Source of the DNA: Amyelois transitella
Taxonomy: Eukaryota > Arthropoda > Insecta > Lepidoptera > Pyralidae
Length of the DNA stretch: 64,000 bases
NCBI RefSeq assembly: GCF_032362555.1
Contig: NC_083507.1
Span: forward strand, 8,063,001 to 8,127,000
Direction of reading: 5' to 3'
Positions 11,095 to 38,600 of this stretch are shown here, piece by piece; position 1 is the stretch's first letter, and each line of letters starts with the position of its first letter. A program made the position numbers and the translations under genes. A model generated the notes under the pieces. That model did not search any database and was not told the DNA's origin. It worked only from the letters and a program-made list of their open reading frames with translations.

Positions 11095-14000
11095 CTAATG
11101 ACCCTTGGCGGCCTCCTTGGCGGCCATGATCAGCGGCGTCAGCGACGCCAGCGGCCGCGCCAGCTTCAGGAACGGGTGCTACGATACAAAAAATGCATAA
11201 CTTAATATTTATGGAAGAAGTAAAAGTATGAGTAAGTGGTACTTTGATAAAATTTTAAATCAGGCCGAACGACAGGTTACGTCCTGAAAAGTAAAGTATC
11301 TCGCACACATTTTATTAAAAGAATCACTTCTCTCAATCCGAAAAGGGATGTAGTAGATTTTACGGTTTGTAAGAATATAGCACTACACTCACACACTGTA
11401 TTTGCGCGAGCCTTTTATATACATTATGCAGAAAGTTGAAGAACCGCCTAATATCTCTCTCTACCTATACTTTCCACGTCGACGTCGAGACGCTGTTTGA
11501 GGAAGTCCTGAAAGATGGCGCTAAACTTGTCCTTGTTTATTTTTCCTTCTCACGGTGTCGCTTAGCTACGTATAACACTATAATATAATGTATATGCAAC
11601 AATCTCGTCTCCGTATCACTACACATACTTTGAGTAAGTCTATCGCTGCGGCGCGTCTATCCACGTCGACCTCGAGGCACTGGTCGAGGAAGTCCTGGAA
11701 GACGGCGCTGAGCTTGTCCTTGTCCTTGATGTCGGGCTTCCCGTTGGTCGCGATCAGGTACAGCGCGCGCAGCGGATTCTCGTTCAGGTACGGGGGCTCG
11801 CCTTCGATCATCTCTATCGCCATTATACCCAGCGACCATACATCCACCTAGATAATTATAAACAAAATATTAATACTTATGTAGCAGCTTTATCATGTAT
11901 CTGACGTTTAGTCCTGGTAACATACTCTCTTGAATAAGAGACTGGGTCCATATACATAATGATCTTGAAGTGGGAAAGTTAGATGATTTCCTTCATCGTA
12001 AAAACATTGGATAGTATTCAAAGAATAATTTTCGTCTTCTTTAGCTAATTGAGTAATAAAATTTATTATGTAAAACCTACTTTAGGTCCGTACTGTTTTC
12101 TTGTAACCACTTCAGGCGCCATCCAATACGGTGTTCCGACCATCGTTGTTCTTTTGTTTTGCTCAGGGGATATTTGCGCGCAGAACCCGAAATCCGCTGA
12201 AATTAGGATGTAATTAGTAAATTGTATATGGATTCGCATGTTATATACCACTCAAGCCGTCCAGAACAAGGTCTCTCGCGAAAGTCTGCACGTAAATGAA
12301 CTTTATGTCCTAGCAATAAGGTTCAATACATAGGTCGAACCTTATGTGCTGGCAATATATCACAAAATGGCGGCTGCGCCACCGTGTAGTAACCGGTCTG
12401 TGGTTGATATATACGCCTGGAATACCTTGCGACACATGGCCATGATCTTAATACACGAATAATGATTTTCCTACTTTTAATAAAGACTTAATTTTTTAAC
12501 ATAGTACACTTACTTAATTTGACTTGTCCGTCGAGTCCAAGCAGTATATTGTCAGACTTGATGTCCCTATGTATGACATGGTTCGTGTGGAGGAAGTGTA
12601 GCGCCTGTAGTACCTCGCGACAAACGGCCGCGATCTGACCCTCGTCCATACACGTCTCGGTCACTACGTCCGTTAGCGAGCCGCCCGCCAGGTATTCCAT
12701 AACAACCCACAGTTCCTGGAAAAAAGTGAACATGAAATTATAGTTGTGACAATTTTCCTTGTCAACTGTCACATCTTAAGCAAATTAAAGTTTTCGAAGA
12801 AAATAGGAGAGCTAATTTTGTTAGCAACTATAGATAGATAGATAAAACTCTTTATTGCACCATAAGAGAAAACATACAAAACAACACAAAGCAGATATAG
12901 ATGGTACAAAGGCGGACTTATCGCTAAAGCAATCTCTTCCAGTCAACCTTTGGGTGGAAGAACCAAACAGGAGATCGGCGTTGGCGGCGAACAAGATAAA
13001 TAAATGTTTGAACATAATAAAATACATACTACTAATAAAATATATATATATGTACATACATACAGAATATATATCTATGTATAATACATATAAATACATA
13101 CAAATACACATAAATACATATAAATACATAATAATAACATGTACTTAGGATAGAGTAGAAAGATAATGAGACCTAACGAGATTTTTGAAACTATTAATAG
13201 TATATTCAAGGTTCAATTCACAAAACCGAAATTTTAAACGTGAGCTACGGGTTAACCCTAGTACAATATATGTCAAGGAACTAACAAAAACATTAGCAAT
13301 CGCTTAAAGGGAGATTTCGTAGTCACGGTTTTTTAGGAGGCATAACCATTCATACCAATGAGAGTAAAAGTCGAAAACATCTGGATAAACTTTGCAAAAG
13401 ATGATAATGCGAGTCGAAAGACCAGTGGATCACAAAGTTCAACATAATAAGAATTCAACATTTATCACATTGCAATGCCATGAAAACCCAACATTCAACT
13501 TTATGAGAGTTCAACATCTTGATTTTAAATGAATCAATTTCGTTTTAAATCAGGACGACAAATACAGTGCCAAATAGGGAAAATGAAAGGTTTGAAGGTG
13601 GCCCTGTCCACGAAGCATTAGAGGGCGTAAGATGAAAAGATGAGAGACTAGATATTTAGAGAAAAAAACAAAGTATCACTAAAAAAATTAAGTAACAAGG
13701 GCAAAACGTACCTCGTTAACAAGATAGCTGTCCAGATAGTTGACGACGTTGTTGTGCTTGTTCTCCCGCATCACCAGGATCTCGTTGATGATCAGCTCCT
13801 TCTTCGGCTGCTGGCTGAGGTTCATCTGTTTGATCGCCACCTCCATACCAGTAGACGTTTCTATCGCTGTGTAAACTGTACCTGATGCACTGCAATCAAT
13901 TGAAAACAATTTAGTATAAGTAACATTAACATATAAGGATCTTTATTATGGTGAACCAAACTGCATGCTCATGAAACATGCTCTTTTTGTGACGGAAAAC

Positions 14001-35610: not shown

Positions 35611-38600
35611 ATGGGTAAGGAGAAGACTCACATCAACATCGTCGTGATCGGCCATGTGGACTCCGGCAAGTCCACCACTACCGGCCACCTCATCTACAAA
35701 TGTGGGGGCATAGACAAACGTACCATTGAGAAGTTTGAGAAGGAGGCTCAAGAGATGGGCAAGGGTTCTTTCAAATATGCGTGGGTAGGTTTACCAAAAA
35801 TTTATTGTTTGTCCAATTGCTGTAAGTCTTACTCCATTTTTAACCGACTTCAATACGACCGTATTTTTTTTCATAACTTTATTGGGTGGTACGGGCGGGT
35901 TCTTGCGACATATAAATAAATTCTCTTGCAGTGGATGTTGTATAATTAAATGACTAGAAAACATCATGTATGGGGTCTTCACCACTTACTCGGACAAAAC
36001 TGGCTGGATATGATTTAAGATCACTCAATCTCTTATCATGTCTCTAATTGCTAGGAATTACAATGATTCCTAGGAATCACACTGAAACAGCTAAACTAAA
36101 TTACCCCACTTTGGATCGGCTAAGAAATTTCATTGAAAATTCCTACACGAGCTTATTCAAACCTTGTGGTAAGTATTTTTATTTAGTAATTAAATATTCT
36201 TAAATAAATTCTGGTATTAATAATAAAAATAAATCTTGTCAGGTCCTGGATAAATTGAAAGCAGAGCGTGAGCGCGGTATCACCATAGACATCGCGCTGT
36301 GGAAGTTCGAGACCGCGAAGTATTACGTGACCATCATCGACGCCCCGGGACACAGGGACTTCATCAAGAACATGATCACTGGCACTTCGCAGGTAAGGGG
36401 GAGAATATTGAAATGCCTTAGTCTTCCACCTACCGTCAATCCCGGTTACATTCTCACTATCTGGAGAGTGGTGAAACTTTTGACCACGATCCTGGATTGG
36501 ACAAGGTTTACAAGAAGCGTCACTAGCATGTCTGACCTCCACAACCTTTGCAATGGAATTCATCCTTTTTTGAGTCATTGTAAATTCATTAGATGAATGT
36601 GCATATTAATTATTCCCTTATGTAAACACTTGTTTCGAGACAAGCGGAGTTTACGTTTGATTTGTAACTCGATAGCATGCATGTTACGACACAATATGGT
36701 ATGGTCTGATGAACCGGTATAAAGGACACAATTTGACCTGTGCTCTTTTGTGTTCTCAGACGCTGCTTGATCTTTATGTGAAGTTTAAGGTTTTTTATTG
36801 TATTTTGCAATGGGTTGACCTACCCAAATCCTTTTAGAATATTGCATTATTAAAATGAACTTACATTCACAAGCTATCTTTACATATCATCAATATCCGT
36901 CAAACTGTTGAGCCTTGAAATTACTAAGTACCTAGGACCTATATACAAACTCAACCTTTCAGGACTACAAAATTGTCTTCTTGAAATGATAAGTTTAAAA
37001 AATATATTAATTTCTAACATATAAAATTTTCAAGTTTTCAAACTCTCAATTTGTTCTTTATGCGGATTGCGAAGTACGTATCATCGGCGAGTTCGAAGCT
37101 GACATCAGCAAGAACGGGCAGACTCGCGAAAATGCATTAACTGTTTTTAGGATAAAGATGAATTAAATTTCGACAAACTTTATAGCCTTGAAATTTCTAC
37201 TAACATTATTAAGCGCTTTATTATTCGGAACAGCAGTGGCAGCATTATTCAGAATTAACATTCACAAAGCTATATCTATATCTTAAATCATAGTCAAGTA
37301 AAGGAATTACGTTTTAGAGCTTTGATCAAGCCTTTTTCTTAAGTCAACTCAACTCAAGTCTTTAAGGTCATTTATTCTTTAGGCGGACTGTGCAGTACTT
37401 ATTGTAGCCGCCGGCACCGGCGAGTTCGAAGCTGGCATCAGCAAGAACGGGCAGACACGCGAACACGCATTACTCGCCTTCACGCTCGGTGTGAAACAGC
37501 TGATCGTGGGCGTCAACAAGATGGACTCCACTGAACCGCCGTACCACGAAGCCCGCTATGAGGAGATCAAAAAAGAAGTCTCTTCTTATATTAAGAAAAT
37601 TGGTGAGTTATTTCATGTGTCAAGTCTTTTTTCCAGCGAAAAGAGTCTTAAAGCGGACGATTTATGACGACCCGGCATACAGGGTTGTTAAATTTGCATT
37701 ACAGAGCTTGATAAGAGCTGTTCTTGGTTCAGTTTTTTTATTGAACAAACAGAAGCATACCTACTACCTAGTTAGTTCGGAGTTTGCACTTAAGTAGGTA
37801 TTTTTGGATTTGTTTCTTCAGAAGTTTAAGTAATAATAATATAATAAAGGCGTCGGGACGTGACGACCCCATCGCCCCCTGGGTCACCTTCCCAGTGCAA
37901 TCAGTCTCCGCAGGGCAGCTTGTGGCGAGCTGTTGGGGAGTAGCGACCCCACGGACCTGAGTGCTCCCAGGGGAGGCCCCTGTTCCTCGCCTCCGATCTT
38001 CCTTCGCCAAGGTCGGAGTGGAAACCGATGAGGGACAGGACCCCTACCTCTGGCTTGCCTTAACCGGCCGGTCAGAGTGGAGTCGCGAGAGCTATACGCT
38101 CGAAGGATGGAAGTGTAAAATGTCATAACGCCGGGGGTGCCTGACTGGATCACCACGATTTCACGCCCCGCAGTCTCACCTCTCGACATCCTTAGCCACC
38201 CACGCCGATGTTGCCCCTTTGTTGCTTATCATGGTGACTGATTTGAGGGGCCCATTTAGTGAGTGGCGAGTCACCACCTGCCACATAATAGTCACGTATT
38301 CATGATTATGGCAGGTGTCCGAACTTCTCCAGCAATAGCCCAGTTTAAATCCATCCAAACGTCAACTCCATAACCCATCATTCTTTTCCTTATTTTGTAA
38401 TAGCTCCACCTCCTGCCGAGACCTGTTCATGGACATATCGTGTATTGATATGGCCGGGAACGGGTTTTGGCAGGAGAACAACATAACATCAACTTCTCCA
38501 AAGGGCCTCTACGTGTTGGATTTATATCCCCACGCAAGCCTCTCAAAAATCCGGGGTGTATAGACCCGTGAAACCCAAGAGGAGAAATATAATAATAAAA

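What the first reader, a model, noticed from the sequence alone, without database searches (positions are those of the whole stretch)
11448..37150. Three neighbouring genes share one habit: broken copies of their own exons in adjacent introns
Six partial exon copies were seen in about 26 kb: two in PAK, three in the golgin (two from exon 10, one from exon 13) and one in eEF1A. All are incomplete, all lie in an intron next to the parent exon, and five of six lie just downstream of it in the direction of transcription. Three unrelated genes doing this side by side suggests a local mutational process (short tandem duplication, replication slippage or break repair) rather than selection for alternative exons. 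I know of no standard name for this pattern.
Basis: partly seen in the sequence, partly recalled or inferred. Interest (0 to 1): 0.75.

Follow-up and report, generated by a model that had tools for sequence, protein, structure and literature searches.

The report
Decayed exon copies beside three genes
Three neighbouring insect genes carry six broken, decaying copies of pieces of their own exons in the next intron; they look like scars of short local DNA duplications, a known kind of event that seems unusually dense here.

Summary
All six partial exon copies are found: PAK exons 9 and 11, two of golgin exon 10, golgin exon 13, eEF1A exon 3. Of 78 flanks of 39 exons tested against shuffles, the five flanks holding them stand out most (z 7.7-47.9); PAK exon 9 is the least certain. 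All six are direct. They differ from their parents by 9-28% (gaps counted), so collapsed haplotypes are an unlikely cause.

Best explanation: relics of short local DNA-level duplications (tandem, or repair copying a nearby stretch), now decaying in introns. They do not look like usable exons: each copy's best acceptor scores below about 90% of the window's true ones, and the ratio of amino-acid-changing to silent differences (0.42) is near the 0.5 expected of a free copy of a constrained parent. The eEF1A pair is a plain tandem duplication across the intron/exon border; in four others co-duplicated sequence is not detectable.

Such events are known: "doublets", repair-mediated duplications, intronic exon duplications. 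What remains odd: the density (2.5% of exon bases have an intronic partner at 80% identity or more; 0.08% published for Drosophila), a nominal, post hoc exon excess, and three pairs spaced 185-188 bp. No moth genome was reachable, so generality is untested.

The parts
11629..11847 (-). PAK coding exon 11 (parent)
   Evidence: gene model; kinase domain and PAK1-3 matches
11470..11536 (-). partial copy of PAK exon 11 (parent bases 11657-11723, 57/67 identical, no gap), downstream intron, start spacing 187; looser scoring extends it to 11569 (parent 11761)
   Evidence: z 28.9 against shuffles
12514..12715 (-). PAK coding exon 9 (parent)
   Evidence: gene model
12385..12457 (-). weak partial copy of PAK exon 9 (parent 12570-12654; core 12570-12636 with 12385-12448, 49/68; strict scoring keeps only 35 bases), spacing 185-188
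   Evidence: z 7.7; not found by blastn self-search
26514..26679 (+). golgin (GRIP-domain) coding exon 10 (parent)
   Evidence: GRIP Pfam hit on exons 13-14
26726..26834 (+). copy 1 of golgin exon 10 (parent 26564-26677, 87/108 ungapped, 4 indels, 3 stop changes)
26845..26963 (+). copy 2 of golgin exon 10 (parent 26560-26678, 102/119, no gap); ends one base before the exon end
   Evidence: z 47.9
28914..29067 (+). golgin coding exon 13 (parent)
   Evidence: gene model; GRIP domain
29140..29204 (+). partial copy of golgin exon 13 (parent 28955-29019, 50/65, no gap), spacing 185
   Evidence: z 13.1
37383..37602 (+). eEF1A coding exon 3 (parent)
   Evidence: gene model; Pfam
37068..37139 (+). truncated copy of the 5' part of eEF1A exon 3 (parent 37383-37472; core 58 bases 53/58), acceptor AG changed to AT
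   Evidence: z 27.1
36881..37139 (+). left unit of the eEF1A tandem duplication (intron end plus exon start)
   Evidence: alignment 36881-37139 with 37153-37472; part outside the core significant (extension p 0.002; local 0 of 500 shuffles)
37153..37472 (+). right unit of the same tandem duplication, running into the real exon

Best explanation
The six pieces are scars of short germline duplications of local DNA. In each, a stretch of tens to a few hundred bases, partly or wholly exonic, was copied a second time in the same orientation within about 350 bases. This happened by tandem duplication (clear for eEF1A exon 3; likely for the two abutting copies of golgin exon 10) or by break repair or replication that copied a nearby stretch (possible for the three short pieces from PAK 9, PAK 11 and golgin 13). 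The parent exon stayed whole and constrained. The extra piece lay in the intron without a working acceptor, was spliced out, and has drifted since. SHOWN: the copies, their orientation, their position, weak or missing acceptors, decay consistent with neutrality, co-duplicated intron in eEF1A. INFERRED: the repair or replication step, that the pieces are spliced out, and that purifying selection removed duplications carrying a working splice site, which would explain why survivors are partial and mostly downstream.
For: All six direct and near; inverted scores of the same five flanks are 12-16, the level of shuffled direct scores. The eEF1A units abut (36881-37139 and 37153-37472, 13 bases between) and the homology crosses the splice site into the intron: DNA, not mRNA. 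Flanks of the six copies show no match to the end of the previous or start of the next exon (12 tests, p 0.41-1.0), and the longest run of A within 80 bases after any copy is 4. Golgin copies 1 and 2 lie head to tail. Decay: pooled 52 nonsynonymous over 404.3 sites and 40 synonymous over 129.7, ratio 0.42 (single copies 0.27-0.80, sums mine), near the 0.5 I expect for a neutral copy of a constrained parent; golgin copy 1 has 3 stop changes and 4 indels. Best acceptor per copy 1.6-4.1 against a 10th percentile of 5.4 in 34 true acceptors; best donors 2.6-5.8 against 5.8. Precedent: PMC2671141 reports 824 proximal repair duplications (mean 162 bp) in human, a few with exon donors; PMC8654963 reports tandem duplications from about 100 bp upwards in C. 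elegans from failed strand-annealing repair.
Against: A plain tandem duplication predicts the rest of the unit after each copy. It was not detectable in four cases (PAK 11 p 0.30, PAK 9 p 0.26, golgin 10 copy 2 p 0.30, golgin 13 p 1.0), although 28-56 bases of that rest are exonic in three of them. So either later deletion or a non-tandem copying event is needed there. Non-tandem repair copying should also give inverted copies, and none was found. Intron-only duplications of similar age should be detectable at 0.45-0.69 of the exon rate from 5-9 times as many sites, yet only one clear pair was seen (42149/42430), and it looks repeat-derived (the last from recall). That leaves a nominal, post hoc exon excess which this explanation does not account for. 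A few true splice sites in the window score lower than the copies' best sites (lowest true acceptor -0.9, donor 1.6), so weak splicing is not excluded. No significance test was run on pN/pS.
Confidence: 0.72

Rival explanations
1. The copies are, or recently were, real alternative (mutually exclusive) exons that arose by tandem exon duplication and are decaying.
For: Golgin copy 2 is open in the parent's frame for 41 codons with one 3-base gap; tandem exon duplication is a known source of alternative exons (PMC9013439, sections 4-5 and found passages read; PMC6071210, abstract).
Against: All six are partial; the five downstream copies lack the exon's 5' end and the eEF1A copy has AT for the acceptor AG; best acceptors lie below about 90% of true ones; pN/pS is as expected without selection; golgin copy 1 has stops and frameshifts.
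Confidence: 0.07
2. Exon DNA is a preferred source of local copying in this genome (for example through transcription, GC content or nucleosome positioning on exons), so this is an exon-biased mutational process rather than generic local duplication plus faster fading of intron pairs.
For: Five exon-sourced copies above the blastn-like threshold against one clear intron-only pair, although intron sources in the three genes have 5-9 times the opportunities and 0.45-0.69 of the power: p about 0.005 if opportunity times power is near 3 (my arithmetic's formula). 2.5% of exon bases (244 of 9669) have an intronic partner at 80% identity or more, against 0.08% in D. melanogaster (PMC9013439).
Against: The window was reported because of these copies, so the p value is inflated; the grid printed, with smaller assumed opportunity ratios (2-3.5), gives 0.009-0.45. 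The two golgin exon 10 copies may not be independent. Methods differ from the published survey. For the 65-67 base pieces the power ratio is only 0.07-0.39, depending on the assumed indel rate. Introns are partly repeats, which reduces old intron sequence.
Confidence: 0.13
3. Assembly artefact: collapsed or badly joined haplotypes or reads.
For: None direct; raw reads were not available.
Against: Copies differ from parents by 9-28% (53/58 to 49/68 identical, gaps counted) and three genes are affected differently.
Confidence: 0.02
4. RNA-mediated insertion of mRNA or pre-mRNA fragments into the parent gene.
For: All sources are exonic or mostly so; golgin exon 10 copies stop one or two bases before the exon end.
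Against: No exon-exon junction and no poly(A) at any copy, the eEF1A copy contains intron sequence upstream of the acceptor, all direct and adjacent.
Confidence: 0.04

Closest known systems
Repair-mediated proximal duplications (Pace et al. 2009, PMC2671141; abstract, results parts 1-2, section 14 and found passages read)
   Same: Copying of DNA over short distance, tens to hundreds of bases, mostly neutral afterwards, acceptors often intronic, occasional exon donors including partial exon/intron.
   Different: Described in vertebrates; pairs within 50 bp were excluded there; one exon case there is inverted, none here; exon donors were rare there (8 of 824 donors in the three exon rows of its Table 2).
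Short paired duplications or 'doublets' (Thomas et al. 2004; known here only through PMC2671141; the paper itself is not held)
   Same: Short local duplications at close spacing.
   Different: Second-hand; described in mammals; no exon link known to me.
Tandem duplications from failed strand-annealing repair (HELQ/BRCA1, C. elegans; PMC8654963, found passages and section 12 read)
   Same: Direct duplications from about 100 bp upwards; fits eEF1A exon 3 and golgin exon 10.
   Different: Median about 1 kb and seen in repair mutants; for four copies here the full unit is not detectable.
Small inverted triplications with breakpoints at nucleosome midpoints and Okazaki-fragment ends (PMC13334657, abstract passage and found passages only)
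   Same: Local re-copying at nucleosome scale (148/160/148 bp on average), tied to lagging-strand processing.
   Different: Inverted structures in yeast and cancer; here all copies are direct and no chromatin data exist.
Intronic, partial or inter-boundary exon duplications (Exonize, PMC12343006; abstract, overview part 1 and results read)
   Same: Exon matching intron of the same gene, used there to find degenerate exons.
   Different: A classification by alignment coverage, not a mechanism; the program was not run here.
Tandem exon duplication leading to mutually exclusive exons (PMC9013439, PMC6071210)
   Same: Exon sequence duplicated next to its parent.
   Different: Here copies are partial, lack the parent's acceptor and show no sign of selection.

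Membership tests
Repair-mediated proximal duplication (PMC2671141) | copy at least 50 bp, donor within 5 kb | tested here: met
   pieces of about 58-126 bases, all within about 350 bases; PAK 9 shrinks to 35 bases under strict scoring
Repair-mediated proximal duplication (PMC2671141) | donor and acceptor more than 50 bp apart (tandem excluded) | tested here: inconclusive
   spacer 48 for golgin 10 copy 1; 65-278 for the others, depending on scoring; the eEF1A full units abut
Repair-mediated proximal duplication (PMC2671141) | microhomology, filler or small deletion at the breakpoint against an empty site | not testable with these tools
   no relative genome; breakpoints blurred by 9-28% divergence
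Simple tandem duplication | direct orientation | tested here: met
   six of six direct
Simple tandem duplication | units abut and the whole unit, intron included, is duplicated | tested here: inconclusive
   met for eEF1A exon 3 (p 0.002); not detected for PAK 11, PAK 9, golgin 10 copy 2, golgin 13; golgin 10 copy 1 leaves only 14 bases to test
Tandem duplicated alternative exon | complete exon with usable acceptor and donor | tested here: not met
   all partial; best acceptors below the 10th percentile of 34 true ones
Tandem duplicated alternative exon | purifying selection on the copy | tested here: inconclusive
   pooled pN/pS 0.42 against about 0.5 expected without selection; no significance test run
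Processed retrocopy | spliced exon junction, poly(A) | tested here: not met
   12 junction tests p 0.41-1.0, longest A run 4; eEF1A copy contains intron
Intronic exon duplication (Exonize) | query exon aligned to intron above the coverage cut-off | not tested
   program not run; coverage here is roughly 26-72% of the exon by my alignments (my arithmetic)

The most novel reading that the evidence does not exclude
Local copying in this genome prefers exon DNA and is set in register with chromatin: pieces are re-copied about one nucleosome repeat (185-188 bp) away, as in PAK exon 9, PAK exon 11 and golgin exon 13, because exons carry positioned nucleosomes and Okazaki-fragment ends or breaks at one nucleosome use the equivalent place one nucleosome away. 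Evidence: three of six spacings within 4 bases (chance 0.0055-0.0079 for six uniform spacings, chosen after the fact), the nominal exon excess, and a precedent for nucleosome-phased small inverted triplications (PMC13334657, passages). Against: nothing else in the window peaks at that lag (1 shared 9-mer pair at lags 185-189 against a mean of 3.1 per bin); the other spacings are 162, 285 (123 if counted from copy 1) and 321-333; looser scoring shifts one end of the three to 190-197. That 185-188 is a nucleosome repeat is recalled, not measured here.
Probability: 0.07. Interest if true: 0.75.

Novelty: new member of a known kind. Interest (0 to 1): 0.35.

Why it matters
Most short local duplications fade unseen because both copies drift. 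When one copy is a constrained exon, it works as a reference against which age and decay of the other can be read. If the density here (six relics at five of 39 exons) held genome-wide, such genomes would offer a dated record of short duplication events and of the selection that removes those carrying working splice sites. If it is peculiar to this locus, that would itself need a cause. Annotation programs may also take such pieces for exons.

Tried and rejected
Plain tandem duplication for all six: supported for eEF1A only; the predicted tails are not detectable in four others. Selection on the copies: no sign in pN/pS, stops, indels or acceptor scores, though without a formal test. A relative-rate test between the two golgin exon 10 copies (20 against 11 private changes) gives chi-square 2.6 (my arithmetic), not significant. 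A window-wide peak at lag 185: absent once the known pairs are removed. RNA origin: no junction or poly(A). Relatives: PAK exon 11 searched in genome contigs and viral contigs, nothing confirmed. Published precedent for nucleosome-register direct duplication: the listings (no paper) gave none by title and abstract start; the nearest is PMC13334657 (inverted; passages). Searches for the pattern in Lepidoptera (listings only) gave nothing on it that I recognised. The eEF1A intron also shows a second weak pair (36844-36903 with 37242-37297) that does not fit the main tandem unit; unresolved.

Limits of the calculations: gene models are hand-made and the golgin may have further exons; exon borders in the scripts are off by 1-4 bases for a few golgin exons and by up to about 9 for PAK exon 4, and the joined PAK and golgin frames break for that reason; this does not affect the six pairs. 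Inverted scores were not shuffled; the highest (26, 23, 22) belong to golgin exons 3 and 4 and PAK exon 2. The scan used 100-base windows, step 25, the next 600 bases, 30 shuffles and only windows scoring 15 or more. Acceptors were sought from 40 bases before each copy, donors to 60 after. Power figures rest on assumed indel rates.
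Full report
What is there. The window carries five recognisable genes: an MsrB (SelR) gene, a group I PAK kinase on the minus strand (PBD and kinase domains; best solved relatives PAK1-3), a GRIP-domain golgin, an eEF1A with ten coding exons, and a GFAT with one long coding exon.

The copies are real. Of 78 exon flanks (39 exons, five genes), five stand above 100 dinucleotide shuffles each by a wide margin: golgin exon 10 downstream (z 47.9, two copies), PAK exon 11 downstream (28.9), eEF1A exon 3 upstream (27.1), golgin exon 13 downstream (13.1), PAK exon 9 downstream (7.7). 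Two more flanks barely beat their shuffles, and 71 do not beat all of theirs. A self-blastn finds five of the six copies independently. A scan of the whole window for direct pairs up to about 700 bases apart, whatever their content, returned 17 merged pairs above z 5. Six rows are exon-to-copy pairs (the eEF1A pair is listed twice; golgin exon 10 with copy 1 is missing, presumably because copy 2 outscores it), one is golgin copy 1 with copy 2, one is the pair 42149/42430, and nine are weak (score 16-25). Among the nine, a PAK exon 12 / exon 11 match reaches z 8.8 at score 19, so the PAK exon 9 copy (score 25, z 8.7 there) is the least certain of the six.

Geometry. The eEF1A case is a tandem duplication: the stretch 36881-37139 matches 37153-37472, the two abut within 13 bases, and the match runs from intron across the splice site into the exon. 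The part outside the core is significant by itself (anchored extension p 0.002; local score reached by 0 of 500 shuffles). The left unit's acceptor AG has become AT. The two golgin exon 10 copies follow the exon head to tail and end one or two bases before the exon end. The pieces from PAK 11, PAK 9 and golgin 13 have start spacings of 187, 185 and 185 (PAK 9 end spacing 188). Their lengths depend on scoring: PAK 11 is 67 bases with blastn-like scoring and about 100 with that; PAK 9 is 64-67 with the scoring and 35 with blastn-like scoring; golgin 13 is 60-65. Loose scoring moves one end of the spacing to 192, 197 and 190. For these three and golgin copy 2, the rest of a tandem unit is not detectable after the copy (p 0.26-1.0). 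They may be tandem units that later lost their ends, or pieces copied in by repair.

Decay. Differences from the parents pool to 52 nonsynonymous over 404.3 sites and 40 synonymous over 129.7 (sums mine), a ratio of 0.42; single copies range from 0.27 to 0.80. A neutral copy compared with a parent that changes only at silent sites should give about 0.5, so no selection on the copies is needed; I ran no significance test. Golgin copy 1 has 3 stop changes and 4 indels. With position weights from the 34 introns of the window, each copy's best acceptor (1.6-4.1) is below the 10th percentile of true ones (5.4), and best donors (2.6-5.8) are at or below theirs (5.8); the lowest true sites score less still (-0.9 and 1.6), so weak use is not excluded. 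Flanks of the copies match neither the previous exon's end nor the next exon's start (12 tests, p 0.41-1.0), and no poly(A) follows (longest A run 4).

Why partial and mostly downstream. I infer, and did not show, that selection explains this. A duplication that brings a second working acceptor or a whole exon disturbs splicing and is lost. One that starts inside the exon and ends in the downstream intron leaves an acceptor-less piece that is spliced out. The 5:1 ratio is by itself not significant.

Is it more than generic duplication? In simulation, intron-only pairs of the same length and age would be detected at 0.45-0.69 of the exon rate on average (0.07-0.39 for the two short pieces), from 5-9 times as many possible sources in the three genes. 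One clear intron-only pair was seen, so there is a nominal excess of exon sources: p about 0.005 if opportunity times power is near 3 (my arithmetic); the grid printed, for smaller opportunity ratios, gives 0.009-0.45. The figure is weakened further because the window was reported for this feature, because the power estimate depends on assumed indel rates, and because introns here are partly repeats. At 80% identity or more, 244 of 9669 exon bases (2.5%; 3.2% without GFAT) have an intronic partner. A published survey gives 0.08% for D. melanogaster, 0.06% for C. elegans and about 2% for human, with other methods (PMC9013439, results and methods read). So the density is high for a fly-like baseline and ordinary for a human-like one.

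Spacing. Three of six spacings fall within 4 bases (185-188). Six uniform spacings would do so with probability 0.0055-0.0079, but this was noticed afterwards, and the rest of the window shows no peak at that lag. Small inverted triplications with nucleosome-phased breakpoints have been reported in yeast (PMC13334657, passages), so the idea is not without precedent. I keep the nucleosome-register reading as the boldest one, at 7%.

What is known. Short local duplications are a described class: doublets and repair-mediated duplications within 5 kb (PMC2671141: abstract, results parts 1 and 2, section 14 and found passages read), tandem duplications from failed strand-annealing repair in C. elegans (PMC8654963: passages and section 12 read), and frequent small duplications purged by selection in Drosophila (PMC6380325: abstract read). 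Exon-to-intron matches within a gene are a category of the Exonize program (PMC12343006: abstract, overview part 1 and results read), which reports more vertebrate genes with partial, inter-boundary and intronic than with full exon duplications. The finding is therefore a new set of examples of a known kind, with a local density that only a genome-wide count can judge.

Noticed in passing
2052-3312 and 16196-17292: A repeat in inverted orientation about 13-14 kb apart, 93-97% identical in three blocks; a young mobile element by its look.
   Followed up: no
37973-38601 and 60420-61024: A 0.6 kb repeat, 90% identical, one copy inside eEF1A intron 3.
   Followed up: no
17369, 27127, 28243, 35179, 50718, 53495, 56535: A dispersed family of up to about 250 bases, seven places, 69-88% alike in either orientation; three of the places lie in PAK and golgin introns.
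   Followed up: no
42149-42275 and 42430-42556: Direct pair, 76% over 127 bases, spacing 281, in eEF1A intron 6: the only clear intron-only local duplication; looks repeat-derived (the last from recall).
   Followed up: partly
36844-36903 and 37242-37297: A second, weak direct pair in the eEF1A intron whose order conflicts with the main tandem unit; perhaps an additional round of duplication, perhaps chance.
   Followed up: partly
48460-50487: GFAT coding region in a single exon beside many-exon genes; may be a retrogene.
   Followed up: no
28746-28858 and 30555-30661: Inverted pair, 78%, 1.7 kb apart, the first arm in the golgin intron just after exon 12.
   Followed up: no
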